64,000 nt of DNA from Deroplatys truncata (Eukaryota > Arthropoda > Insecta > Mantodea > Mantidae). This document shows, one piece after another, positions 1 to 62,075 of the stretch. The notes beneath the pieces were generated by a model, which saw nothing but the letters and a program-made list of their open reading frames with translations, was not told the DNA's origin and ran no database searches. Position numbers and translations under genes: made by a program. Positions within the stretch are counted from its first letter, which is position 1, and every line of letters starts with the position of its first letter. Location of the stretch: NCBI GenBank assembly GCA_030765065.1, contig CM060978.1:54340421-54404420 (forward strand), written 5' to 3'.

Positions 1-756
1 TGGCACCATCTTGCTGGAACCAGATGTTTCTGAGATCCATACCATTCAATTGAGGCCAAAAATAGTCCCTTATAAGAGCCCGGTATCTTTCCCCATGACA
101 GTTAGAGCTGCTCCATCTTCATCTTGGAAAAAATATGAACCAATGATTCCACCATACCAAAATCCACACAGTACCCTTTTGGAGATGAAGTGGTCGTTCT
201 TGTATCTTCATTGGATTGTGATTGCTCCTATAACGTAATTTTGTTTCTCAATACAACCATCCATCCAAAAGTGGGCTTCGTCGCTGAAGATGATTTTTCG
301 ACAAAAAACCGGGTCAGCTTCCAATCGTTCCACAGCCCAGTCAGCGAATACACGGCGCAACCTATGGTTCTTTGTCTTCAGTTCTTGAGTTAACACCATT
401 TTGTAAGCGTGAAACTTCAAGTCTAGATGCAGAATTTGCCAAGTTGTGGTCGGCGAAAGCCACATTTCTTGCGCTCGACGAGCAATTGATTTGTTTCCAT
501 TCTCGCGTACACTCTCACGAACAGCGCCTATGTTTTCGTTGGAGCGCTTACGTCGATTACGTACAGGCGTTCTTTGATCGCTGACAAAATCACTTCTTTC
601 AAATTTATCGATCAAACGCCGAATCATTCCCTTGCAGGGACGATTATGCACACCGTAAGCTTCACGCAATACACGGAAGGTTTGGCGAATAGATGATCCA
701 TTTTGATAATAAATTTTCACAATTTCTACGCGTTGCTGAATGCTGTAACGTTCCAT
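1..756 (-). pseudogene. Mariner-like transposase (DUF4817 type), broken, runs off left edge
   Basis: Would cut and paste its own transposon as a DDE-type nuclease in the nucleus. The ATG at 756 opens 182 residues starting MERYSIQQRVEIVKIYYQNG, a helix-turn-helix N-terminus typical of the DUF4817 mariner-like group, followed by a second helix-turn-helix stretch (RRAQEMWLSPTTTWQILH). The first catalytic aspartate is in IIFSDEAHFWMDG. The frame is lost near 208. GFWYGGIIGSYFFQDEDGAA follows in another frame, and YRALIRDYFWPQLNGMDLRN then IWFQQDGA (second catalytic aspartate) in a third, ending at the window edge. At least two frameshifts therefore make it inactive. The family is recognised from memory of its motifs. 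The right terminal inverted repeat, if kept, lies in 757-840, but I could not define it. Confidence 0.85.
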
Positions 757-11370: not shown

Positions 11371-13549
11371 AGTTCCACGTATGGACGCCAATTTGAAGTA
11401 GGTAGTTGCTGCTACGTATTGAAAGTCAGTTTGTAGATGCTGTATTATATTTCAACTGTTGGGGAACCGAACTTGTAGTAGTTGCAACCGCACGTATGGT
11501 ACCCGGTTTCTGGTAGCCTTCGCCCCAAATGTACTTTCAGGTGGCCTTTGCCCCAAGTTTAAAAAACAATATTAACTTTGTAATTAAAGTGTTTCTTTAA
11601 ATATTTAATATTTATGTTTGCCTCGGCCGCATCAGTATTATTTTAGAGACATGAATATCTTGGCAGACGTGATGCGACTAGGAATGTAGGCTTACACAGA
11701 TTATATTTTTTACTTCACTTCTTTTTATTAATCCTTGATACGATTTAAATAACAACTCACTGATATAGAGAGCTGTGAGATTCTTTTTACTAATTAATTA
11801 CTTTTTTTAACACACTTATTTTTCGTCTCACACGAATACATATTATATTTCTTGAGGACACTTTGCGTCTGGTTATGAGCACTGTTTGGAGGCAACTGAA
11901 TTGATTTCAACCGTCTAAACTTGTAAATTTCTGTATTTCAAGTCTCTGATTGGGTAATACTACTCCAATAGAATATATGCATTTAACTAAAGCTTTTTCT
12001 GGTTGTTGATTGGCTATTTTTATAAACTGTCACTAGAATTCCAAGAAACACAAGTAACATTTAAACTCTCAAATTCATTATTGCCTCAAGGTTACCTCAT
12101 TGTTAGCAACTTTTAACTTATTATTCTCACAGCTCCTACATTATTAAATTACGTAATGCATTCACACAGCATTATTACACATGAATACAATAATATAAGC
12201 ATATGCAATGACTGTTACATACATTTTACAAATTATTACACATGAATACAATAATATAAGCATATGCAATGACTGTTACATACATTTTACAAATTATTAC
12301 ACATGAATACAATAATATAAACATATGCAATGACTGTTACATACATTTTACAAATTATTACACATGAATATAATAATATAAGCATATGCAATGACTGTTA
12401 CATACATTTTACAAATTATTACACATGAATACAATAATATAAGCATATGCAATGACTGTTACATACATTTTACAAATTATTACACATGAATACAATAATA
12501 TAAGCATATGCAATGACTGTTACATACATTTTACAAATTATTACACATGAATACAATAATATAAACATATGCAATGACTGTTACATACATTTTACAAATT
12601 ATTACACATGAATATAATAATATAAGCATATGCAATGACTGTTACATACATTTTACAAATTATTACACATGAATACAATAATATAAGCATATGCAATGAC
12701 TGTTACATACATTTTACAAATTATTACACATGAATACAATAATATAAACATATGCAATGACTGTTACATACATTTTACAAATTATTACACATGTTTACAA
12801 TAATATAAACATATGCAATGACTGTTACATACATTTTACAAATTATTACACATGAATACAATAATATAAACATATGCAATGACTGTTACATACATTTTAC
12901 AAATTATTACACATGAATACAATAATATAAACATATGCAATGACTGTTACATACATTTTACAAATTATTACACATGAATACAATAATATAAGCATATGCA
13001 ATGACTGTTACATACATTTTACAAATTATTACACATGAATACAATAATATAAGCATATGCAATGACTGTTACATACATTTTACAAATTATTACACATGAA
13101 TACAATAATATAAACATATGCAATGACTGTTACATACATTTTACAAATTATTACACATGAATACAATAATATAAGCATATGCAATGACTGTTACATACAT
13201 TTTACAAATTATTACACATGAATACAATAATATAAGCATATGCAATGACTGTTACATACATTTTACAAATTATTACACATGAATACAATAATATAAGCAT
13301 ATGCAATGACTGTTACATACATTTTACAAATTATTACACATGAATACAATAATATAAGCATATGCAATGACTGTTACATACATTTTACAAATTATTACAC
13401 ATGTTTACAATAATATAAACATATGCAATGACTGTTACATACATTTTACAAATTATTACACACACATATTGCTTTAAGGCGGGATGTTATTAAATTTACA
13501 TATTATATAATTTGACTGAAATCATTTAGGTGTTAAAAACACTGCCTCA
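11371..13549 (+). mobile_element. LTR-like repeat, family G copy 2, enlarged by a satellite
   Basis: Same block order as the other G copies: CACGTATGGACGCCAATTTG, TGTTGGGGAACCGAAC, TATAGAGAGCTGTGAGA, TGCCTCAAGGTTACCTCATT, CACAGCTCCTACATTATTAA, and an ACTGCCTCA end at 13549. The segment near its end, present once in copies 1 and 5, has been amplified to 21 units (12179-13459), roughly doubling the copy's length. No coding region. Confidence 0.7.
12179..13459. repeat. 61-bp satellite array, 21 units
   Basis: Unit begins ACATGAATACAATAATATAA and ends TTACAAATTATTAC. Unit starts fall at exact 61-bp steps from 12179 to 13399 with no indels. Variants (GAATAC/GAATAT/GTTTAC; AAGC/AAAC) repeat as a four-unit block in units 1-4 and 5-8, i.e. 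a 244-bp higher-order repeat. The last unit carries the GTTTAC variant, like the single ancestral unit in family G copy 1. Confidence 0.97.
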
Positions 13550-16202: not shown

Positions 16203-17093
16203 TCTGATGTGTTACACTCACATAACTTTCTCTACTCTTGTACACCTAATTTTACAAACGCCTATTCTCCATATGCTTCATGTTAATCGAGATATCGAGA
16301 TGCCAATCTTATTGATAATTTTCTTGTAGATGCAAGGGGAATATGGTAGCTTTTAAGCGATAGTCAAATATTTTAACGCTGGTTGCTATGTGTGGCATTC
16401 CATTCTCTTTGCATGTCCAGAACATAAAAAAAATGAATAACGAATTTGAGAAAAAGTATAAGTATTGGAAAATTTAAGGGAATAACAAGCAATATCTCGC
16501 AAACGGTTCACTCAACAAAAGAAATGTATATGACATAAATTGTGTATTTTAACGCGATCTACATTTTTCGTGTAGTAAACTTTTGTCTATCTCTTATGGT
16601 TTACCAGTTATGAAAAAGTCGTTCATAATGAAGAATACTTTTGGAGACATTCCCAGAAAATTCGAGATATACATTTTATTTGTCATGACAATATCTTAAA
16701 CATATGATATTTTAATCAAAATCGTTAGAGCCGTTTTTGAGAAAATTAAAATTTTCGAAAAATGTTCCATGTAAAGGGTAGTCTGGGGTGGAGGGATTTT
16801 CTTGAAAACCTTCGTGTCGCATCTCTGGAAGATACTGAACCTAAATACCAAGTTTGGTGCTTATCCGATTGTTCGTTTTTGAGTTATGCTGTTCACAGAC
16901 ACACACACAGACACACACACAGACACACACACAGACACACACACACACACAGACACACACACGGACATGTTTCTAAAAATGCTTTTTTTGGATTCAGGAG
17001 GTCTCAAAACGTGTATTTCCGGTGAAATCTCGGTATCGAATTTTTGGGTGGAATGCAATACTTCCCCTACTTACTATACGTAGTAGAGAAAGT
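16203..17093 (+). repeat. Family H copy, near full length
   Basis: TCTGATGTGTTACACTCAC at the start and GTAGTAGAGAAAGT at the end, both in A-runs. It has an extended GACACACACACA microsatellite at about 16900-16960. All blocks are in consensus order. Open frames across it run through the microsatellite and are not conserved in frame among copies. Confidence 0.93.
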
Positions 17094-23758: not shown

Positions 23759-25430
23759 TCTGATGTGTTACGCTTATTCTCCATATGCTTCATGTTTATC
23801 GAGATGTCAATCTTATTGGTAATTTTCTTGTAGATGCAAGGGGAATATGGTAGCTTTTAAGCGATAGTCAAATATTTTATCGCTAGTTGCTATGTGGCGC
23901 ATTCCATTCTCTTTGCATGTCCAGGACATAAAAAAAATGAATAACGAATTTGAGAAAAAGTATAAGTATTGGAAAATTTAAGGGAATAACAAGCAATATC
24001 TCGAAAACGGTTCACTCAACAAAAGAAATGTATATGACATAAGTTGTGTATTTTAACGCGATCTACATTTTTCGTGTAGTAAAATTTTATCTATCTCTTA
24101 TGGTTTACCAGTTATGCAAAAGTCGGTCACAATGAAGAACACTTTTGGAGACATTCCCAGAAAATTCGAGATATACATTTCATTTCTCATGACAATATCG
24201 TAAACATATGATATTTTAATCAATATCGTTAGAGGCATTTTTGAGAAAATTAAAATTTTCGAAAAATGTTCCACGTAAAGGGTAGTCAGGGTGGGGGGAT
24301 TTTCTTGAAAACCTTCGTGTCACATCTCTGGAAGATACTGAACCTAAATACCAAGTTTGGTGTTTATCCGACTGTTCGTTTCTGAGTTATGCTGTTCACA
24401 GACACACACGGACATGTTTCCAAAAATGCTTTTTACTTTCTCTACTACGTACAGTAAGTAGGGGAAGTATTGCATTCCACCCAAAAATTCGATACCGAGA
24501 TTTCACCGGAAATACATGTTTTGAGACCTCCTGAATCCAAAAAAAGCATTTTTGGAAACATGTCCGTGTGTGTGTCTGTGTGTGTGTGTGTCTGTGTGTG
24601 TGTGTGTCTGTGTGTCTGTGTGTGTGTGAACAGCATAACTCAAAAACGAACAGTCGGATAAACACCAAACTTGGTATTTAGGTTCAGTATCTTCCAGAGA
24701 TGCGACACGAAGGTTTTCAAGAAAATCCCCCCACCCCAGACTACCCTTTACATGGAACATTTTTCGAAAATTTTAATTTTCTCAAAAATGGCTCTAACGA
24801 TTTTGATGAAAATATCATATGTTTAAGATAATATCATGAGAAATGAAATGTATATCTCGAATTTTCTGGGAATGTCTCCAAAAGTATTCTTCATTCTGAA
24901 CGACTTTTGCATAACTGGTAAACCATAAGAGATACACAAAATTTTACTACACAAAAAATATAGATCGCGTTAAAATACACAACTTATGTCATATACATTT
25001 CTTTTGTTGAGTGAACCGTTTTCGAGATATTGCTTGTTATTTCCTTAAATTTTCCAATACTTATACTTTTTCTCAAATTCGTTATTCATTTTTTTATGTC
25101 CTGGACATGCAAAGAGAATGGAATGCGCCACATAGCAACCAGAGTTAAAATATTTGACTATCGCTTAAAAGCTACCATATTCCTCTTGCATCTACAAGAA
25201 AATTACAAATAAGACTGACATCTCGATATCTCGATTAATATGAAGCATATGGAGAATAGGCGTTTGTAAAATTAGATTGTACAAGAGTAGAGAAAGTCAT
25301 GTGAGTGTAACACATCAGATTTTTTTGGATTCAGGAGGTCTCAAAACATGTATTTCCGGTGAAATCTCGGTATTGAATTTTTGGGTGGAATACAATACTT
25401 CCCCTACTTAGTATACGTGGTAGAGAAAGT
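23759..25430 (+). repeat. Family H copy split by another family H copy
   Basis: The + copy starts TCTGATGTGTTACGC (a short internal deletion removes the first ACTTTCTCTAC) and runs to CAAAAATGCTTTTT at 24434. It resumes at about 25320 with TTTTTTTGGATTCAGGAGG and ends at GTAGAGAAAG at 25430, where a mariner has inserted. Confidence 0.93.
24435..25319 (-). repeat. Family H copy nested in a family H copy (885 bp)
   Basis: ACTTTCTCTACTACGTACAG to ACACATCAGA, inserted in the T-run of the host's AAAATGCTTTTTTTGGATTC motif, opposite in orientation to the host. It has a GT/CTGTG microsatellite at 24565-24630. Confidence 0.96.
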
Positions 25431-25431
25431 A

Positions 25432-26691
25432 AGAAGGTCATTCAAAAAGTGTTGCAAGTGTTATTGAAAAACGTATCCTCCCAATCCTTCAAAGTAGTCT
25501 CCATCTATCTCCACACACAGTTGCAGATTGTGCAAGCATTTGTCAAAAGCACTACGATACTCGGACTGAGGTATTGTCAACAGAGCTGAATTTATAGCCT
25601 GAGCAATGTCCTGCATTCGTTTAAAAGGTTTTCCAGTAATGCAATATTTCACTCGAAGAAACAGCCAGAAGTCTCACAGTACAACGTCAAGGCTATAGGA
25701 TGGATGGTCAAGCAACTGGACTTTAACGGCTTCCAGTTTCCTCAAATTTGCCGCTGTTCTGCGAGGAGACGCATTGCCATGCAAAAGTAAACGGCCTTGA
25801 AGCTCTGCCTTTGGACGCCGCCGCCTCAGCTCTTCAAATGAAGGATTCAAAACATGAGCCATAGCATCCTCCATTCGCTGTCATTCCTTCTAGCATGCAG
25901 TCAATCACTAAGGGTCCTTCATAGTTGAACACGGTGAGCATTCGCTTCCGAGAACGAAACATCTTGTCGACGAAAAACTGGTCTTGGATCAGTCTCATTT
26001 ACCCAGACACAATTCAGAGATTTACTTGGTGTGGTATAATAACAAAACCAACTTACATCACCAGTGCATACATCTGTCAAACGTTTAGGCTCACTAGGCG
26101 GAAATATGTTCAGCAGCCTCCTTGCACATTCCTTTCTTGTCTTTATTTGTTAGAGAATGCGGAACCCATTTTGCACAGATTTTTCGCGGCTTTAAATGTC
26201 CATGGAGTATACAATCAATGCTGTCAACACTGATACCGACCTCCATACTTAGCATTTCAATAGTATTATGTCGATTTTCCTCCGCCAAGTTCCTCATTCT
26301 TTGAATTTTCTTTCGTTCACAGATTGCAAAGACCGGCCAGAACGAGGGCTGTCTTTCAAAGTCTCTCGCCCTTCTTCAAATGATCAAATACATCTTGCAA
26401 TGGTATCAAATGAACTCACCTTATCACCATAAACAGCTAACAATCCTCATAGATATGGTTTGCTCTTTCACCTAGCTTGTAACATGTGAAAATGTAGAAT
26501 TTAATACATTTTCACCAGCAGGCCTGAACTCAAAAGAGACTGTACGACAATGAATATTAAAGTTTAAACTCGCACTTATTCATAGTTTGATAGCTTAAGG
26601 TTAATTGTTGCCAGCCGTATTAGTTACACTTTTGTAACCATTGTTGTCCAACAATGGCTAGGCTGGTTGCTATACTTTTTGAAGCCCCTCG
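25432..26691 (-). mobile_element. mariner element, about 1.26 kb
   Basis: Flanked by TA at 25430-25431 and 26692-26693. Imperfect terminal inverted repeats read inward: GGTCATTCAAAAAGTGTTGC on the left and, reverse-complemented, GGGGCTTCAAAAAGTATAGC on the right. The left TA is the last bases of a family H terminus, so the mariner is the younger insertion. Confidence 0.85.
25461..26480 (-). pseudogene. mariner transposase, broken
   Basis: Reading from 26480 down: FDHLKKG, KDSPRSGRS-type linker, then IQRMRNLAEENRHNTIEMLS (helix-turn-helix) and SIDCILHGHLKPRKICAKWV with PHSLTNKDKKG, the mariner signature KxCAKWVPH.L. Further on is GRLLLHGNASPRRTAANLRK, where the usual HDNA of the second catalytic aspartate reads HGNA, so that residue is lost. 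LLDHPSYSLDV follows, keeping the third aspartate, and the C-terminus ends FDKCLHNLQLCVEIDGDYFE. Several frames are used and the first catalytic segment is scrambled. It is inactive. Confidence 0.85.
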
Positions 26692-29733: not shown

Positions 29734-30064
29734 GTTATAGAAAGGAAAAAGGAAGAGGAAAAGAAGGATCTTGTTCAGAGGTGGCGCTATTTATTGGGGG
29801 CATAATTGGCATCGTGGTGGCTAGTACCGCCGAAGCAAACCTGCGGTTCGTGGGTAATTACTAAAAAACGGAGAGGTCCAAAGTGGATGGACATACTCCT
29901 CAGTGGGGAATAGGTAAAAGTCATGGCCGAGGCCCTGACAGTAACCTAGAAAACAGTGGTGGCTTAACAGTTGATGATGGTACCGAGCCCGGGCCTGTTA
30001 CCTCCGGGCATCGGAGTGTGGGTGGTGTAGAGTCGTCCCGCGTCGGTGGATGCGCACCCGGGCT

Positions 30065-31260
30065 TTACCTCCGGGCACGCGGATGAGGCGATGCGGCGTG
30101 AGGTGATGCAGCGTGTGGAGAGGGGTTGTCGAGATGATGGTGCAGGTTCCCCTCCATGCCTTTGTTGAGCTCCTGAAGGCGATCAAAACCGTCAGCCGTC
30201 TGGTTGCGGCTTTCCTCCATGAAGTCGAGTGCGTCTAGGTGTTGCTGTTGAATCTTGGAGAGTGCCTCTTTGTGGTGCTGCGTAAGTTGTTTTGTGATCT
30301 CTGCGTAGTGGCGATCTAGTTTCTTCATAGATTCTGCGTGTTCGGCGAAGTGGCTGTTGACGTTGTTGACGAGGCGTTTCTTGGTGACGTCGTGTGATTC
30401 GTCTATGATGCTGACGACCTCCGTGAACTGTGAGTTGAGGTGCTCTTCCAGGGCAGAGAGCCTGCTGGCAAGGTTTAGCACCTCAGCGTGAAGGTCCTGT
30501 ATGGCGTCGATGATGTTGGTGGTCTTGGTTGATTGCTGCTTGAGTAAGTCGTTGGCGTCTGCTATGTGTTGTTGTATCTGCGGTGAGTCGTTGTGAGATG
30601 GCGTGATGTTCTGCGTTGGCTCTGTGGTGTGCGGCGATGGTCTGCGTGGATAGAGTGGGCACGTGGCCTGACCAGTGAAATGCCCCTTGCCCCCGCAGGA
30701 GGCGCAGAAGCGGCGTCGTTGAGTCAGGTCGTGTGCCCGACATTCTGCAGTGAGTGTCCCGCTACCACAGTAATGGCAGCGGGGTGCGGCGTCGCATGTT
30801 GTGTCGGTGTGCCCGTACAGGCAGCAGCGGCGGCATGGCGTTGGGCGAACACTACGGCTGGCCTCGATCTGCAGGATTTGCCCTAATAAGGGCAGTCCTG
30901 CGCCGAGAGCCGCCAGTAATCGTCCTCTTCGATGAAGATGAGTCTGATGAATGGCGTAGGACCTCTGCTGTTCCTAATTCGCGTCGCCCTGGCCGCAGAC
31001 GGCCAAAAGCGCTGCGCGGCGGTGAGGAGTGAGGTCTCCGGTAGTTGTCTATGTACTCCCCGGACGACAGCGGAGTGGCGTGCGTGCACGCGGTTCTGCG
31101 GTGAGTGGTTGGCTGCGCTGATGGGAGAGGAGGCGCTGGATGCTTCGGCTGGCGGCGGCGAAGAGGCGGGAAGCTGGTCATCATCTTCGTCGGCGATGGC
31201 GATGGTTGCCTCGCAAGGAGCGGCCTTTGCGGCTGCGGCGGTTTTCTTCTTTCTTCCCAT
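30065..31260 (-). pseudogene. LINE ORF1 protein (Gag-like, CCHC zinc knuckles, coiled coil)
   Basis: RNA-binding ORF1p-like protein of a Jockey-superfamily-like LINE. It begins MGRKKKTAAAAKAAPCEATI and has an acidic, Pro/Ser-rich N-terminus. RIRNSRGPTPFIRLIFIEED then YWRLSAQ leads, after one frameshift near 30890, into GLPLLGQILQIEASRSVRPT. Next come three zinc-knuckle segments: CRRCCLYGHTDTTC (CX2CX4HX4C), CHYCGSGTLTAEC (histidine replaced) and CASCGGKGHFTGQATC. About 170 residues predicted as coiled coil end the protein (LASRLSALEEHLNSQF, KLDRHYAEITKQLTQHHKEA, LSKIQQQHLDALDFMEESRN). Total length is about 398 codons. In Jockey-type ORF1 the knuckles are normally near the C-terminus, so the long coiled coil after them is unusual. 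G+C is clearly above the surroundings. Confidence 0.85.
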
Positions 31261-31797
31261 GTTGTCTCGATGAGAGCACGAAGCGAAAGACCCCCGCCTG
31301 AATTTGCAAATTTCATCTATTTCAAGTCTGTGATTGGCTAATGCTACTCCAATACAATACTTGTATTTAACTTAAGTTGTTTCTGGTTGTTGATTGGCTA
31401 TTTATAAACTGTCTCAAAAATTACATTATTGTTGCTCCAAGTATTACTAGTATCATTATTAAACTTTCCAATTCATTATTGCCTCAAGGTTACCTCATTG
31501 TCACCTCATTGTTAGCAACTTTTGACCTATATTCTCACAGCTCCTACATTATTAAATTACATAATACATTCACATAACATTATTAAATATGTACATAATA
31601 ATATAAACATAATACAATGACTGTTACCTAAATTCTATATGTTATTTATACACACGTTGCTTCAAGACGGGCTGTTATTATATTTTATATTATATAATTA
31701 CACTGGAATCATTTAAGTGTTAAAAATACTGCCTCAATTACCAAGTTTGGTATTTATCAGACATCTTACTGTTTAGTTCTGCTGTTCACACACAGGA

Positions 31798-32597
31798 GTA
31801 TTGGTTATGCAAGTATATATACAAATGGTTTTCTTTATATCAGAAACTCTGGGCACAGCATGAAGCAAGTTTGGCCGTCCCTGCTACACAACGAAAAATT
31901 AGGTCAGTGATTGTCTCCTACTAAGATGAAGGGTACAATTAACCTACTCCATAGATATTGTACACGCAGCACTCCGTTCGTGCGCTACTCTGTTGTTTTA
32001 AGTTGATTGTATGGTTATTATAACACTGTTCATGCGAAGGCCATGAAAATTAAGTAGTGGTTAACATTGTACAAAGGTCATAACAAACACTATGCATGCA
32101 ACGAATGCGCTCTAGACTCCGTGGAGATACGTAGTTATATTTTACTAACAAGGATCAAACCTATTAGACAGGAGCACGCATGTCGCATGCGGAAGATAAA
32201 AATTACAGATGTAATTCGTAAAAGAATCTGCAACATTTGCGAAGAGAAGGGATCCTGGGTTGCAAGCTGTAGAGGCATGAAGAAATGGAGGAGAAATTGT
32301 TTACTACAATCCTTTATCGCATCGAAAAGAGAGTTAAGAGCATGTTGGGCGCTACTGTAAGGCAGGGATAAGTAAATATCTGCTTAAGAGAGCCTCTGGA
32401 ATGGTACTTTATATTTATGCTATTATACGTCATCCAGGTACTGCTATTACGCTCTTAACTTTCTTGGGTTTTCTTTGCCTAATATAAAAGTGCACAACAG
32501 TGTATCCAATAGGCTTTCCGTTTTATGTTTTGTTCTTGCTTAATCTGGTATAATTGAATATGTTTATCTTACTTTCTATTGTAATAGTGCCTTTTAT
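31798..32597. other. Unassigned sequence
   Basis: A 97-codon open frame (32067-32360, with CNICEEKGSW) was examined. It has no recognisable domain, no initiation context and no neighbours to support it. Confidence 0.45.
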
Positions 32598-34275: not shown

Positions 34276-34281
34276 AAAAAA

Positions 34282-37200
34282 TCTGATGTGTTGCACTCAA
34301 TGACTTTCTCTACTCTTGTACAAACTATTTTTACAAACGCTTATTCTCCATATGCTTCATGTTAGTCGAGATGTCGAAATGTTAATCTTATTGCTAATTT
34401 TCTTGTAGATGCAAGGGGAATATTGTACGTTTTAAGCGATAGTCAAATATTTTAATGCTGGTTGCTATGTGGCGCATTCCATTCTCTTTGCATGTCCACG
34501 ACATAAAAAAATCTGATGTGTTACACTCACATGACTTTCTCTACTCTTGTACAATCTATTTTTACAAACGCCTATTCTCCATATGCTTCATGTTAATCGA
34601 GATATCGAGATGTCAATGTTATTGGTAATTTTCTTGTAGATGCAAGGGGAATATGGTAGCTTTTAAGCGATAGTCAAATATTTTAACGCTGGTTGCTATG
34701 TGGCGCATTCCATTCTCTTTGCATGTCCAGGACATAAAAAAATCTGATGTGTTACACTCACATGACTTTCTCTACTCTTGTACAATCTAATTTTACAAAC
34801 GCTTATTCTCCATATGGTTCATGTTAATCGAGATATCGAGATGTCAATCTTATTGGTAATTTTCTTGTAGATGCAAGGGAAATATGGTAGCTTTTAAGCG
34901 ATAGTCAAATATTTTAACGCTGGTTGCTATGTGGCGCATTCCATTCTCTTTGCATGTCCAGGACATAAAAAAAATGAATAACGAATGTGAGAAAAAGTAT
35001 AAGTATTGGAAAATTTAAGGGAATAACAAGCAATATCTCGAAAACGGTTTACTCAACAAAAGAAATGTATATGACATAAGTTGTGTATTTTAACGCGATC
35101 TACATTTTTTGTGTAGTAAAATTTTGTCTATCTCTTATGGTTTACCAGTTATGCAAAAGTCGTTCACAATGAAGAATACTTTTGGAGACATTCCCAGAAA
35201 ATTCGAGATATACATTTCATTTCTCATGACATTATCTTAAACATATGATATTTTCATCAAAATCGTTAGAGCCATTTTTGAGAAAATTAAAATTTTCGAA
35301 AAATCTTCCATGTAAAGGGTAGTCTGGGGTGGGGGGATTTTCTTGAAAACCTTCGTGTCGCATCTCTGGAAGATACTGAACCTAAATACCAAGTTTGGTG
35401 CTTATCCGACTGTTCGTTTTTGAGTTATGCTGTTCACAGACACACACACACACAGACACACACACACACACAGACACACAGACACACACACAGACACACA
35501 CACGGACATGTTTCCAAAAATGCTTTTTTTGGATTCAGGAGGTCTCAAAACATGTATTTCCGGTGAAATCTCGGTATCGATTTTTTGGGTGGAATGCAAT
35601 ACTTCCCCTACTTACTATACGTAGTAGAGAAAGTAAAAATCTGATGTGTTACACTCACATGACTTTCTCTACTCTTGTACAATCTATTTTTACAAACGCT
35701 TATTCTCCATATGCTTCATGTTAATCGAGATATCGAGATGTCGATCTTATTGGTAATTTTCTTGTAGATGCAAGGGGAATATGGTAGCTTTTAAGCGATA
35801 GTCAAATATTTTATCGCTGGTTGCTATGTGGAGCATTCCATTCTCTTTGCATGTCTAGGACACAAAAAAATGAATAACGAATTTGAGAAAAAGTATAAGT
35901 ATTGGAAAATTTAAGGAAATAACAAGCAATATCTCGAAAACGGTTCACTCAACAAAAGAAATGTATATGATATAAGTTGTGTATTTTAACGCGATCTACA
36001 ATTTTTGTGTAGTAAAATTTTGTCTATCTCTTATGGTTTACCACTTATGCAAAAGTCGTTGACAATGAAGAATACTTTTGGAGACATTCCCAGAAATTTC
36101 GAGATATACATTTCATTTCTCATGACATTATCTTAAACATATGATATTTTAATCAAAATCGTTAGAGCCATTTTTGAGAAAATTAAAATTTTCGAAAAAT
36201 CTTCCATGTAAAGGGTAGTCTGGGGTGGGGGGATTTTCTTGAAAACCTTCGTGTCGCATCTCTGGAAGATACTGAACCTAAATACCAAGTTTGGTGCTTA
36301 TCCGACTGTTCGTTTTTGAGTTATGCTGTTCACAGACACACACACAGACACACACACAGACACACACACACACAGACACACACACGGACATGTTTACAAA
36401 AATGCTTTTTTTGGATTCAGGAGGTCTCAAAACATGTATTTCCGGTGAAATCTCGGTATCGAATTTTTGGGTGGAATGCAATACTTCCCCTACTTACTAT
36501 ACGTAGTAGAGAAAGTAAAAATGAATAACGAATTTGAGAAAAAGTATAAGTATTGGAAAATTTAAGGAAATATCAAGCAATATCTCGAAAACGGTTCACT
36601 CAACAAAAGAAACGTATATGACATAAGTTGTGTATTTTAACGCGATCTACATTTTTTGTGTAGTAAAATTTTGTCTATCTCTTATGGTTTACCAGTTATG
36701 CAAAAGTCGTTCACAATGAAGAATATTTTTGGAGACATTCCCAGAAAATTCGAGATATACATTTCATTTCTTATGACATTATCTTAAACATATGATATTT
36801 TCATCAAAATCGTTAGAGCCATTTTTGAGAAAATTAAAATTTTCGAAAAATGTTCCATGTAAAGGGTAGTCTGGGGTAGGGGGATTTTCTTGAAAACCTT
36901 CGTGTCGCTTCTCTGGAAGATACTGAACCTAAATACCAAGTTTGGTGTTTATCCGACTGTTCGTTTTTGAGTTATGCTGTTCACAGACAGACACACAGAC
37001 ACACGGACACACTGACACACAGACATGTTTCCAAAAATGCTTTTTTTGGATTCAGTGATTCTCAAAACATGTATTTCCGGTGAAATCTCGGTATGGAATT
37101 TTTGGGTGGAATGCAATACTTCCCCTACTTACTATACGTAGTAGAGAAAGTAAAAATGAATAACGAATTTGAGAAAAAGTATAAGTATTGGAAAATTTAG

Positions 37201-37618
37201 CGGAATAACAAGCAATATTTCGAAAACTGTTCACTCAACTAAAGAAATGTATATGACAAATTGTGTATTTTAACGCTATCTACATTTTTCGTGTAGTAAA
37301 ACTTTGTCTATCTCATATGGTTTACCAGTTATGCAAAAGTCGTTCACAATGAAGAATACTTTTGGAGACATTCCCAGAAAATTCGAGATATACATATCAT
37401 TTCTCATGACAATATCTTAAACATAAGATATTTTAATCAAAATCGTTAGAGCCATTTTTGAGAAAATTAAAATTTTCGAAAAATGTTCCATGTAAAGGGT
37501 AGTCTGGGGCAGGGGGATTTTCTTGAAAACCTTCGTGTCGCATCTGTGAAAGATACTGAACCTAAATACCAAGTTTGGTGTTTATCCTACTGTTCGTTTC
37601 TGAGTTATGCTGTTCACA

Positions 37619-37656
<38 letters not shown>

Positions 37657-38520
37657 TGTTTCCAAAAATGGTTTTTTGGATTCAGGGGGTCTCAAAACAT
37701 GTATTTCCGGTGAAATCTCGGTATCGAATTTTTGGGTGGAATACAATAATTCCCCTACTTACTATACGTAGTAGAGAAAGTAAATAAATAACCAATATTA
37801 GAAGAAGTATAAGTATTGGAAAATTTAAGGGAATAACAAGCAATATCTCGAAAATGGGTCACTCAACAAAAAAATGTATAGGACAAATTGTTTATATTAA
37901 CTCGATCCACATTTTTGTGTAGTAAAATTTTGTCTATCTCTTACCAGTTATGCAAACGTCGTTCACAATGAAGAACATTTTATTTGTCATAAAAATGTTT
38001 TAAACATATAATATTTTAATCAAAATCGATAGAGCCATTTTTGAGAAAATTAAAATTTTCGAAAAATGTTCCATGTAAAAGGTAATCTGGGGTGGGGAAT
38101 TTTCTTACAAACCTTCGTGTCACATCTCTGGAAGATACTGAACCTAAATACCAAGTTTGGTGTTTATCCGACTCTTCGTTTCTGAGTTCTGCCGTTCACA
38201 AACACACACACACAGACATATTTCCAAACATGTCTTTTTGGATTCAGGGGGTCTGAAAACATATATTTCCGGTGAAATCTCGGTATCGAATTTTGGGGTG
38301 GAATACAATACTTCCCCTACATACTATACGTAGTAGAGAAAGTCAAAACAAATAACTAATTCCCATTTGAGAAATAGTATTGGTAAATTCATACAAATAA
38401 CAAGGAATATCTCGGAAATGGTTCGCTAAACAAGAAAACTGTATAGCACATAAAGTGTGTGCTTTAATGACATCTACATTTTTTTGTGTAGCAAAACTTC
38501 GTCTCTCTTTATGGTTTAAA
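34282..38520 (+). repeat. Modular head-to-tail array of family H (A-A-A-B-A-B-B-B-B-B')
   Basis: Module A (about 230 bp) runs from TCTGATGTG to GGACATAAAAAA: starts at 34282, 34512, 34743 and 35640. Module B (560-660 bp) runs from ATGAATAACGAA to GTAGAGAAAGTAAAAA: starts at about 34974, 35870, 36521, 37156, 37782 and, partial, 38343. Every junction lies in an A-run that occurs at the start, at the A/B boundary and at the end of a complete element. Each B has its own CA microsatellite of different length. Several frames of 65-110 codons cross the microsatellites and are not genes. Confidence 0.95.
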
Positions 38521-51232: not shown

Positions 51233-52461
51233 CACTACGTGATCAAAAGTATCCGGAAACCTGGCTGAAAATGACGTACAAGTTCGTGGCGCCCTCCATC
51301 GGTAATGCTGGAAGTCAGTATGGTGTTGGCCCACCTTGATGACAGCGTTCACTCTACACGCAGGCATCCTTTAATCAGGTGCCGGAAGGTTTCTTGGGGA
51401 ATGGCAGCCCATTCTTCACGGAGTGCAGAACTGAGGAGAGGTATCGATGTAGGTCGGTGGCGACTGGCACGAAGTCGGCGTTCCAAAACATCCCAAAGGT
51501 GTTCAATAGGATTCAAGTCAGGACTCTGTAAAGGTCAGTCCATTACAGGGATGTTATTGTCGTGTAACCACTCCAACACAGCCCGTGTAGTATGAACAGG
51601 TGCTCGATCGTGTTAAAAGATGCAATCGCCATCTCCGAATTGCTCTTCAGCAGTGGGAAGCAAGAAGGTGCTTAAAATAACAATGTAGGTCTTTGCTGTG
51701 ATCGTGCCACGCAAAACAACAAGGGGTGCAAGCCCCTCCAGGAAAAACACGACCACACCATAACACCACCATCTCCGAATTTCACTGTTGGCACTACACA
51801 CGCTGGCAGATGACGTTCACCGGGCATTCGCCATACCCATACCCTGCCATCAGATCGCCACATTGTGTACCGTGATTCGTCACTCTACACAACGTTTTGC
51901 CACTGTTCAATCCTGTAATGTTGACGCTCCTTACACCAAGCAAGGCGTCGTTTGGCATTTTCCTGCGTGATGTGTACTTATAAGCAGCCACTCGACCATG
52001 GAATCCACGGTTTCTCACCTCACGCCTGACTGTCATAGTACTTGGAGTGGCTCCTGATGCAGTTTGGCATTCCTGTGTGATGGTCTGGATAGATGTCTGT
52101 CTATTACTCTTTACGATCCTCTTCAAATGTCGGCGGTCTCTGTGAGTCAACAGATGAGGTCGGCCTGTACGCTTTTGTGCTGTAAATGTCCCTTCACGTT
52201 TCCACTTCACTATCAAATCAGAAACAGTGGACCTAGGGATGTTTAGGTGTGTGGAAATCTCGCGTACAGACTTCTGACACAAGTGATACCCAATCTCCTG
52301 ACCATGTTTGAAGTCCGTGAGTTCCACGGGACGTCCCATTCTGCTGTTTCACAATGTCTAATGACTACTGATAACGAGTACCAGGCAGTAGGTGGCACCA
52401 CAAGGCACCTAAGATGAAAAACGTATGTTTTGGGGGGTGACCGGATACTTTTGATCACATC
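51233..52461 (-). mobile_element. Tc1-like transposon with both termini (1.23 kb)
   Basis: Terminal inverted repeats GTGATCAAAAGTATCCGG: left from 51239, right as its reverse complement ending near 52457. Flanking TA is at 51231-51232 and 52462-52463. It encodes one transposase on the minus strand. The good preservation of ends and frame suggests a fairly recent insertion. Confidence 0.93.
51315..52339 (-). pseudogene. Tc1-like transposase, nearly complete, frameshifted
   Basis: Begins MGRPVELTDFKHGQEIGYHL at 52339. First helix-turn-helix is SVREISTHLNIPRSTVSDLI, then WKREGTFTAQKRTGRPHLLT with the GRP-type hook and RRHLKRIVKSNRQTSIQTIT, the second helix-turn-helix. A frameshift near 51930 leads to [20 protein letters not shown] (first aspartate), and [16 protein letters not shown] follows. 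Another near 51740 leads to [40 protein letters not shown] (second aspartate), then QSPDLNPIEHLWDVLERRLR (third catalytic residue) and a C-terminus at HQGGPTPY. Total about 340 codons, the usual length. At least two frameshifts and one or two stops. Confidence 0.92.
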
Positions 52462-61375: not shown

Positions 61376-62075
61376 TTTTTTTATTAATTTCTTATTGTCG
61401 CTTTAACAATAAAGTCATAACGCGACTACAATAAGTTACAATATATTGAAACAAATTACAACATTGATTATATAACATTATACAATTTTATTTCTTTTAA
61501 AAACCTTACTATATTGTGACAGATGTTTGGATCACTCAAGGCCACCGAGAGGTTAGCAGGAATACCACACTGAAGCGGATGAACATCGTAGATAGGGCAC
61601 TCTGCAACTATATGCTGAACTGTGAGAATGGAGTGACATGTAGGCTGATGATATTTTCCAAGCAGATATGAATGGGTAACTGCAGTATGTCCGATACGTA
61701 GCCTGGTGAGAAGTACCTGGTTACGACGAATTAGATGTTTTATTGGGTAACTGAAACTAGGATTGGAGCTTAAGGCGATTAGTTTACTATGTGGAACTCC
61801 AGTGTAGCTTCCATTTCTTACATATTTCATACTTGAGGAAATTTTGGAAGTCGTGACGAGGAACCTTGAGGTCGACCAGGCTTGGAGAGTGGCGTGTTGC
61901 TTCTTTACTGCTTCATCAGCTTTTTCATTTCCAGATATGCCCATGTGAGATGGTATCCACGTTAGTGTCACACGTTTATTGCTGGCTTTTATATCATTAT
62001 ACAGCTGTAAAATGTTCTGCACTACACAGTTTCTGGATGACTTCTGTTGTAGAGCTAGAATAGCGCTCACCAGAA
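61376..62075 (-). mobile_element. 5'-truncated LINE ending in an RNase H domain
   Basis: 200-codon open frame from about 62070 to 61468. VSAILALQQKSSRNCVVQNI begins inside the RNase H fold. RVTLTWIPSHMGISGNEKAD carries the late catalytic His and Asp of RNase H. A conserved C-terminal block follows: YPIKHLIRRNQVLLTRLRIG, HTAVTHSYLLGKY and ILTVQHIVAECPIYD, a knuckle-like motif. The stop is close to a 3' end with an A-run (T-run at 61378-61384). The early RNase H aspartates and all RT are missing by truncation. CATCAGAA and CACCAGAA at the two ends may be a target-site duplication. LINEs with RNase H belong to the I/Jockey/R1 side of the tree. The remaining frame is uninterrupted, so this is a relatively young copy. 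Confidence 0.88.

What the first reader, a model, noticed from the sequence alone, without database searches (positions are those of the whole stretch)
34282..38520. Family H grows into arrays by swapping modules at A-run hinges
The array is not a simple tandem repeat. It reads A-A-A-B-A-B-B-B-B-B', where A (about 230 bp) and B (about 560-660 bp) are the two parts of one element, and every junction falls in an A-run. A-runs exist at three places in a single copy (start, A/B boundary, end), so any of them can be joined. This is how an interspersed element could turn into a satellite. Rolling-circle replication with slippage, template switching or unequal exchange could each produce it.
Basis: partly seen in the sequence, partly recalled or inferred. 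Interest (0 to 1): 0.75.

Follow-up and report, generated by a model that had tools for sequence, protein, structure and literature searches.

The report
Jumping DNA nesting inside itself
A very common rolling-circle jumping element keeps landing in a run of A bases inside older copies of itself, so scattered copies turn into satellite-like arrays; it belongs to a known kind of element but shows that route unusually clearly.

Summary
The array is real: window 34282-38518 reads A-A-A-B-A-B-B-B-B-B(partial), every junction in an A-rich run. Read on the minus strand, A+B is a non-autonomous Helentron relative (HINE). An autonomous copy in the same genome, with a 2,324-codon open frame, begins with B (94.8% over 630 bp) and ends with the A terminus; it carries a Rep domain with the Helentron GSPHEH motif, a helicase C-terminal domain and an endonuclease match just below Pfam's cut-off. 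Exact genome-wide junction counts: A-B 43,164, B-B 15,156, A-A 10,734, B-A 8,182.

The arrays are best explained mainly by whole AB copies inserting into the A-run hinge of older copies (A[AB]B = AABB), not by slipping modules. Insertions that missed the hinge left an A-A junction keeping the first bases of B and a B-B junction lacking them: 29 of 91 checked A-A scars have the reciprocal scar downstream, 18 exactly one AB away (chance about 0.006); 62 had no exact partner. Unequal exchange later expands some arrays. A-excess and B-excess arrays are only partly explained.

The parts
34276..34511 (-). A unit 1 (outermost) with its A-runs; in Helentron polarity a 3' end module
   Evidence: most diverged of the three leading A units (0.049 from consensus)
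34512..34742 (-). A unit 2 with following A7 run
34743..34974 (-). A unit 3 followed by the A8 hinge run (34967-34974) at the A/B boundary
   Evidence: hinge pattern found 43,164 times genome-wide
34975..35639 (-). B unit 1 with A5 run; in Helentron polarity a 5' end module with palindromic 12-bp subTIR ACTTTCTCTACT
35640..35870 (-). A unit 4 with hinge run
35871..36521 (-). B unit 2
   Evidence: divergence 0.020
36522..37156 (-). B unit 3
   Evidence: divergence 0.031
37157..37786 (-). B unit 4
   Evidence: divergence 0.039
37787..38348 (-). B unit 5, older
   Evidence: divergence 0.081
38330..38518 (-). B unit 6, truncated after about 189 bases, least similar
   Evidence: 76% identity
38654..39505 (+). 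separate single AB copy in the opposite orientation beside the array
23770..25432 (-). AB copy split by another AB copy (24431-25323, opposite orientation) inserted in the T-run of its B module: built-in empty-site test
16203..17093 (-). typical single AB copy (A8 hinge, A5 end), for comparison

Best explanation
A+B is a non-autonomous element (HINE) of a Helentron, an endonuclease-bearing rolling-circle transposon. Its true polarity is the minus strand: B reversed is the 5' end, A reversed is the 3' end. It inserts without an evident target duplication into T-rich sites, in the orientation set by the T-run. Each copy carries such a run inside itself, at the A/B boundary. A new copy landing there gives A[AB]B = AABB, and repeats give arrays of the kind A..AB..B. 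Landing at the end run gives B-A joins. Landing in the opposite-strand T-run inside B gives an inverted nested copy. Shown: insertions at the hinge's edge (paired scars), the partner element and its ends, the target letters. Inferred: that un-scarred hinge joins arose in the same way; that copying can start at any nested B end and stop at any nested A end, which would move AAB or ABB composites and unbalance the counts; and that the first arrays then expand by unequal exchange (one case with edges inside modules).
For: Paired scars: A-A junctions with the first 3-4 bases of B (GGACAT-A7/8-TGA-AAAATCTG) number 114, and B-B junctions missing them (GAAAGT-AA-TAACG) number 123 (100 of each printed). 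In the region both lists cover, 29 of 91 A-A scars have a same-strand B-B scar within 4 kb downstream, against 1 upstream, 0 on the opposite strand and about 0.006 expected; 18 of the 29 are 831-932 bp apart (one AB), 4 are 1105-1127, 7 are other distances. Un-scarred joins: 31 of 68 A-A junctions have a same-strand B-B within 4 kb downstream, 0 upstream, 8 opposite-strand within 4 kb either side, 0.57 expected. Letter accounting: insertion adds 5 A in total both in the 7-A target inside B (7+5) and in the 2-A scar target (5+2). Pairing: at L030 outer A and outer B share the same two nearest single copies, and the nested pairing of outermost A with last B beats the crossed one at 9 of 10 array loci, 1 tie. 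Age: B divergence rises outward in 14 of 18 untied runs, 20 examined (p=0.011). Partner: 5' end; 3' end; domains; 15 of 16 long-frame copies followed by the same 3' end, 4,928-5,006 bp on.
Against: A-unit divergence shows no outward trend (9 up, 8 down of 17). Many arrays are unbalanced: of the seven other loci picked for matching A-A-A, five read AAABB (L008 is cut by the locus end) where a plain nest predicts AAABBB. B-B exceeds A-A genome-wide (15,156 vs 10,734), and two autonomous copies carry a double B at their 5' end (C9; C3), so some B-B joins need no nesting. 62 of 91 A-A scars had no exact partner; mutated partners would be missed. Scars are about 1% of A-A joins. Nested-versus-crossed differences are mostly small (0.02-0.26), and with the second A instead of the first it is 3 for, 2 against in five AAABB loci. 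Units of one array are slightly closer to each other than to other arrays (A 0.059 vs 0.063, B 0.051 vs 0.060), and in L007, L029, L032 and L033 some neighbours are nearest relatives.
Confidence: 0.86

Rival explanations
1. Module slippage or microhomology repair at A-runs: A and B are duplicated separately by replication slippage, template switching or end joining between A-runs.
For: Joins lie in A-runs. A similar microhomology route is proposed for a Xenopus MITE satellite (review PMC12628747, section read). Could account for AAABB and other unbalanced arrays. L007 has two adjacent A units only 0.005 apart.
Against: Does not predict the paired TGA / TAACG scars, nor A-A and B-B joins occurring together in that order, nor the outer A and outer B of L030 matching the same single copies. 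A units of one array are on average about as far apart as A units of different arrays (0.059 vs 0.063).
Confidence: 0.12
2. Rolling-circle concatemers: a copying circle that has lost its terminator makes strings with many 5' ends and one 3' end (Xiong et al. 2016, as described in PMC12628747), here A followed by many B.
For: Runs of B after few A exist (window ABBBBB part, L036 BBBB with its A side not fetched, L032 AABBBB). Polarity fits: B is the 5' end. Some neighbouring B in L032 are each other's nearest relatives.
Against: Does not make A-A joins or paired scars. B units in the window, L036 and L032 mostly grow older outward.
Confidence: 0.15
3. Unequal homologous exchange alone makes the arrays.
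For: L029: 2,277-bp higher-order repeat with about 1,000 identical bases between copies. C1:19.824-19.832 Mb: four B-A joins exactly 2,481 bp apart. C5:133.864 Mb: four scarred B-B joins exactly 603 bp apart.
Against: Needs a first duplication. Edges at L029 fade inside modules, so it does not place joins in A-runs. Most fetched arrays are short with dissimilar units.
Confidence: 0.08
4. Assembly artefact.
For: Arrays of near-identical units are hard to assemble; no reads were available here.
Against: Junctions are counted in thousands with exact letters; the places printed lie on contigs C1-C15, and the fetched ones have different flanks. Units in one array differ by several percent.
Confidence: 0.02

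Closest known systems
HINEs / DINE-1 (Helentron-associated interspersed elements), Thomas et al. 2014, PMC4067079 (abstract, first third of Results and passages read)
   Same: No coding capacity, T-rich insertion without target duplication, palindromic 12-15 bp subTIR, 3' palindrome, microsatellite core, Rep-helicase-endonuclease partner sharing the ends, very high copy number.
   Different: The parts I read do not report a T-run hinge inside the element used as its own target, nor A..AB..B nests. Here the second subTIR lies 22 bp, not 38-60 bp, from the 3' terminus.
Cg_HINE of the Pacific oyster, PMC7492417 (abstract and insertion-site section read)
   Same: HINEs that carry and spread satellite-like tandem repeats; T-rich targets; some insertions into other repeats.
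   Different: There the repeats are a central array inside one element; here whole modules with their ends are multiplied by nesting.
Transposon dimers from insertion-site preference (McGurk and Barbash 2018; known to me only through the review PMC12628747)
   Same: Tandem copies arise because the element favours a site that its own insertion supplies, then expand by unequal exchange.
   Different: There the site is the duplicated target at the edge, giving head-to-tail dimers; here it is inside the element, giving A[AB]B.
Rolling-circle amplified centromeric Helitrons in plants (Xiong et al. 2016; through PMC12628747) and tandem Helitrons in bat and silk moth (passage in PMC4067079)
   Same: Tandem arrays of a rolling-circle element with repeated ends.
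   Different: Attributed there to a lost or bypassed terminator; the paired insertion scars here show insertion.

Membership tests
Helentron / HINE | Autonomous partner with Rep (Helitron_like_N) domain | tested here: met
   PF14214: 152 matches in the genome (150 of 291 candidates scored), 0 of 14 control genomes; C9 copy E 9.2e-30
Helentron / HINE | Rep motif with S in GSPHxH (Helitrons have L) | tested here: met
   EFQMRGSPHEH in L046; rule from PMC4067079
Helentron / HINE | SF1/PIF1 helicase in the same frame | tested here: met
   UvrD-like helicase C-terminal domain PF13538, 30.5 bits, cut-off 27.4; the rest of the helicase was not read and no PIF1 model was hit
Helentron / HINE | Endonuclease fused after the helicase | tested here: met
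   PF14529 at residues 285-387 of the C-terminal 400, E 5.3e-6, but 26.7 bits is just under the cut-off 27.4
Helentron / HINE | Non-autonomous copies share both ends with the partner | tested here: met
   B 94.8% over 630 bp at the 5' end, A terminus 94% over 33 bp at the 3' end, both at the C9 copy; exact 3' end found after 15 of 16 long-frame copies on C1-C8
Helentron / HINE | Palindromic subTIR of 12-15 bp at the 5' end | tested here: met
   ACTTTCTCTACT...AGTAGGGGAAGT; z -2.25; at the tested pair 31 of 49 ends have T-A, 7 have C-G, 11 other combinations (best-partner search, so leaning to pairs)
Helentron / HINE | Second subTIR 38-60 bp from the 3' terminus | tested here: not met
   present but 22 bp from the T-run; the range was given for mite families, not as a rule for all
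Helentron / HINE | Short palindrome near the 3' end | tested here: inconclusive
   ATGTG...CACAT 5-bp stem, kept in the partner, but no more stable than shuffles (z -0.01)
Helentron / HINE | Insertion in T-rich sequence, no target duplication | tested here: met
   22 intact-ended copies: B side 5 or 6 A in 19, 2 A in 3; A side 4-9 A in 20, 1 A in 2; 5 A added in both known targets; a duplication made of A only cannot be excluded
Helentron / HINE | RPA gene in the autonomous element | not tested
   not looked for
canonical Helitron | 5' TC, 3' CTRR, insertion between A and T (recalled) | tested here: not met
   ends are ACTTTC and CACATCAGA inside T-runs
satellite DNA | Long homogeneous tandem array | tested here: inconclusive
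   this array is short and mixed; a few places show exact periods of 2,277, 2,481 and 603 bp

The most novel reading that the evidence does not exclude
The hinge makes every copy a preferred landing pad for the next, so the family is a self-targeting nester. Because any nested 5' end can pair with any nested 3' end, nests are themselves copied as new composite elements (AAB, ABB, AAABB), and insertion plus rolling-circle choice of ends, not slippage, writes the A..AB..B arrays and seeds satellites across the genome.
Probability: 0.5. Interest if true: 0.7.

Novelty: new variant of a known kind. Interest (0 to 1): 0.56.

Why it matters
How scattered transposons become tandem satellites is an old question that usually rests on end products. 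Here the first step is caught with its fingerprints: over a hundred off-centre insertion scars of each kind, about a third of the checked ones with the matching scar in place, and some ten thousand A-A and fifteen thousand B-B joins beside a Helentron with long open frames. That makes the route countable and testable in one genome. It also warns that module repeats joined at A-runs can come from insertion rather than slippage.

Tried and rejected
Rejected: A and B as two independent elements. In the random 200 kb no complete A stood alone; each was followed by B or by another A. Rejected: simple local tandem duplication as the main source of A-A-A. A units of one locus are mostly not each other's nearest relatives; exceptions are in L007, L029 and L033. 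Rejected: a cut-and-paste MITE, because no target duplication other than possible A bases is seen and the ends match a Rep/helicase element. Rfam at gathering thresholds gave nothing. Ten of the 28 frames of 150 aa or more were scanned: reverse transcriptase, Mos1-like, DUF4817 and sugar-transporter domains, no Helentron. A first pairing test by correlation to 17 single copies was too weak to use. The divergence trend held for B but not for A.

Limits: the random sample was drawn by seed from 12 contigs, only up to the largest coordinate then known, so C7, C12, C15, C16 and contig ends were not sampled; of 100 drawn places only the first 20 were fetched. Pattern counts require exact ends within 2-14 bases of each other, so they cannot see joins at other positions and undercount old copies. 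Counts of A5 in listings (77 of the 100 printed for B-B; 30 of the 60 printed with letters for B-A) were made by eye. The ten B-B loci fetched (L030-L039) are the ten best of 40 after the window's own. My notebook entry places the end of the Helentron frame in L044; that is wrong, the stop is at C9:66072101, and the second piece scanned lies beyond it.
Full report
What is there. Window 34282-38518 holds ten module units in one orientation, A-A-A-B-A-B-B-B-B-B, the last cut short. All nine joins lie in A-rich runs; the two outermost B-B runs are decayed. The window carries at least fifteen further copies besides fragments, and in 200 kb of randomly placed DNA the family covers 27.7 kb, 9.3 kb of it at 85% identity or more.

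One element, not two. In the random 200 kb, each complete A is followed by B, or by another A that is followed by B. A second form of A, about 270 bp long, shares its first 143 bases. In 22 copies with both ends intact (random, window and chosen loci together), the A side is preceded by a variable A-run (4-9 in 20 copies, 1 in 2), while the B side is followed by 5 A (15 copies), 6 (4) or 2 (3).

What kind of element. Read on the minus strand, the element starts at a T-run with ACTTTCTCTACT followed by its near-complement (a palindromic subterminal repeat). It ends with the same 12 bases in inverse sense, a short palindrome ATGTG..CACAT and a T-run. Thomas et al. 2014 (PMC4067079; abstract, first third of the Results and passages read) give this plan for HINEs, the non-autonomous partners of Helentrons. 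Two details do not fit well: the second subterminal repeat lies 22 rather than 38-60 bases from the 3' end, and the 3' palindrome is no more stable than shuffled sequence.

The partner. The genome has 152 matches to the Helitron Rep domain, many in long frames without stops. At C9:66.06 Mb a frame of 2,324 codons is preceded by TTTTTT-ACTTTCTCTACTACG..., that is B at 94.8% over 630 bp, then a second B at 90.9% over 636 bp. About 900 bases after the stop codon (C9:66072101) comes GTAGAGAAAGTTATGTGAATGTAACACATCAGATTTTTTT, the A terminus at 94% over 33 bp. The Rep motif reads EFQMRGSPHEH, with the serine that marks Helentrons. A helicase C-terminal domain is followed by an Exo_endo_phos_2 match (26.7 bits against a cut-off of 27.4). 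The same 3' end follows 15 of 16 long-frame copies (1,100 codons or more) on C1-C8, all 15 at 4,928-5,006 bp. L039, fetched as a B-B locus on C3, lies beside another such frame, matches the front of the C9 copy, and also has two B. So A+B is a HINE of this Helentron, and its polarity is B first, A last.

Census. Exact whole-genome counts of joins, with zero matches to the backward controls: A-B 43,164, B-B 15,156, A-A 10,734, B-A 8,182. The linker was left free in these patterns, yet nearly all printed linkers are A-runs, some with a changed base. The B-B linker is exactly five A in 77 of the 100 printed, the same as the element's usual end. These patterns cannot see joins away from module ends.

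How the joins arise. Three built-in empty-site cases show the target. In window 23770-25432, in L004 and in L008, an AB copy sits at a T-run inside another B, in the opposite orientation. In the window and L004 cases, where both edges were read, the target, CC-A7-GC in most other copies (some have six), becomes CC-A7-TCTG and GAAAGT-A5-GC: five A added and no other duplication. If an AB copy lands in the same way in the A7-8 run between A and B of another copy, the result is A-[A-B]-B with joins GGACAT-A7-TCTG and GAAAGT-A5-TGAAT. Those are the observed A-A and B-B joins.

Decisive test. Some insertions missed the hinge. At C3:18.62 Mb an A-A join reads GGACAT-A8-TGA-AAAATCTG, carrying the first bases of B, and the B-B join of the same block reads GAAAGT-AA-TAACG, missing them. 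Slippage has no reason to make such a pair; insertion at TGAA|TAACG must. Genome-wide there are 114 scars of the first kind and 123 of the second. Within the region both printed lists cover, 29 of 91 A-A scars have a same-strand B-B scar within 4 kb downstream. There is 1 upstream, none on the other strand, and about 0.006 loci expected. Of the 29, 18 are 831-932 bp apart, one AB; 4 are 1105-1127, one A more; 7 are at other distances. By locus it is 26 of 85. The remaining 62 scars had no exact partner in the list.

Supporting tests. On C1, 31 of 68 A-A joins have a same-strand B-B join within 4 kb downstream, none upstream; 8 have an opposite-strand one within 4 kb on either side, so copies do cluster; 0.57 is expected by chance. 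Of 92 A-B joins in the part of C1 that all three lists cover, 5 follow an A-A, 11 precede a B-B and 3 do both (Fisher p 0.011). Of the ten best B-B loci after the window's own (L030-L039, top of 40 scored), seven show two or more A before the B run. One shows a single A, one is the Helentron copy, and in one the A side was not fetched. At L030 the outer A and outer B have the same two nearest single copies, while the inner pair is nearest to the inner pair of L032. Across ten array loci the nested pairing of A and B fits better than the crossed one at nine, with one tie, mostly by small margins. Using the second A instead of the first in five AAABB loci gave three for and two against. B units grow older outward in 14 of 18 untied runs of 20 (p=0.011), but A units show no trend, 9 against 8.

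Second stage. At L029 a 2,277-bp block is repeated with about 1,000 identical bases and fades inside modules, the mark of unequal homologous exchange. Exact periods of 2,481 bp on C1 and 603 bp on C5 look like further local expansion.

What is left open. Five of the seven other loci chosen for A-A-A read AAABB, and B-B outnumbers A-A. Part of the B-B excess can come from the double B of the Helentron. Copying from an inner start to an outer end would give AAB and ABB composites, which fits the 1105-1127 bp scar pairs, but this is inference. Slippage or lost-terminator rolling circles (reviewed in PMC12628747, section 6 part 1 read) may add some units.

Known or new. HINEs carrying satellite-like repeats (PMC7492417, abstract and one section read), tandem Helitrons (passages in PMC5876387, and PMC4067079) and dimers from site preference (in PMC12628747) are known. 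I found no report of a HINE nesting in its own hinge in searches; these cover open-access papers only, and of most papers listed there I saw only the listing. I file it as a new variant of a known kind.

Noticed in passing
12171-13462: 61-bp tandem array, about 21 copies at 98% identity; no A/B family match falls there.
   Followed up: no
L043 1500-2500: The Helentron frame holds a run of near-identical charged repeats (KSERKRNKEYMEQAREDEEY-like units) between an N-terminal domain that Pfam calls Herpes_teg_N and the DUF6570/Rep part.
   Followed up: no
L045 328-1573 and L039 1351-2634: Two autonomous Helentron copies both begin with two B modules in tandem, so double B may be an old trait of the driver itself.
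   Followed up: partly
G000 C1:19824426-19831896 and C5:133864076-133865912: Exact periods of 2,481 bp (B-A joins) and 603 bp (scarred B-B joins): likely young satellite blocks of this family.
   Followed up: partly
L026, L028, L018, L019, L013: Less similar (66-80%) B relatives keep the GTAGAGAAAGT end while in several the palindrome partner changes with it (CTACC/GGTAG versus CTACT/AGTAG), hinting at earlier families.
   Followed up: partly
window 208-756, 51794-52339, 61468-62070: Remnants of other mobile elements: DUF4817 helix-turn-helix, Tc3/Sleeping-Beauty-like transposase, RNase H.
   Followed up: no
30000-32000: Stretch of about 50% G+C where most of the window has 29-46%, with overlapping open frames.
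   Followed up: no
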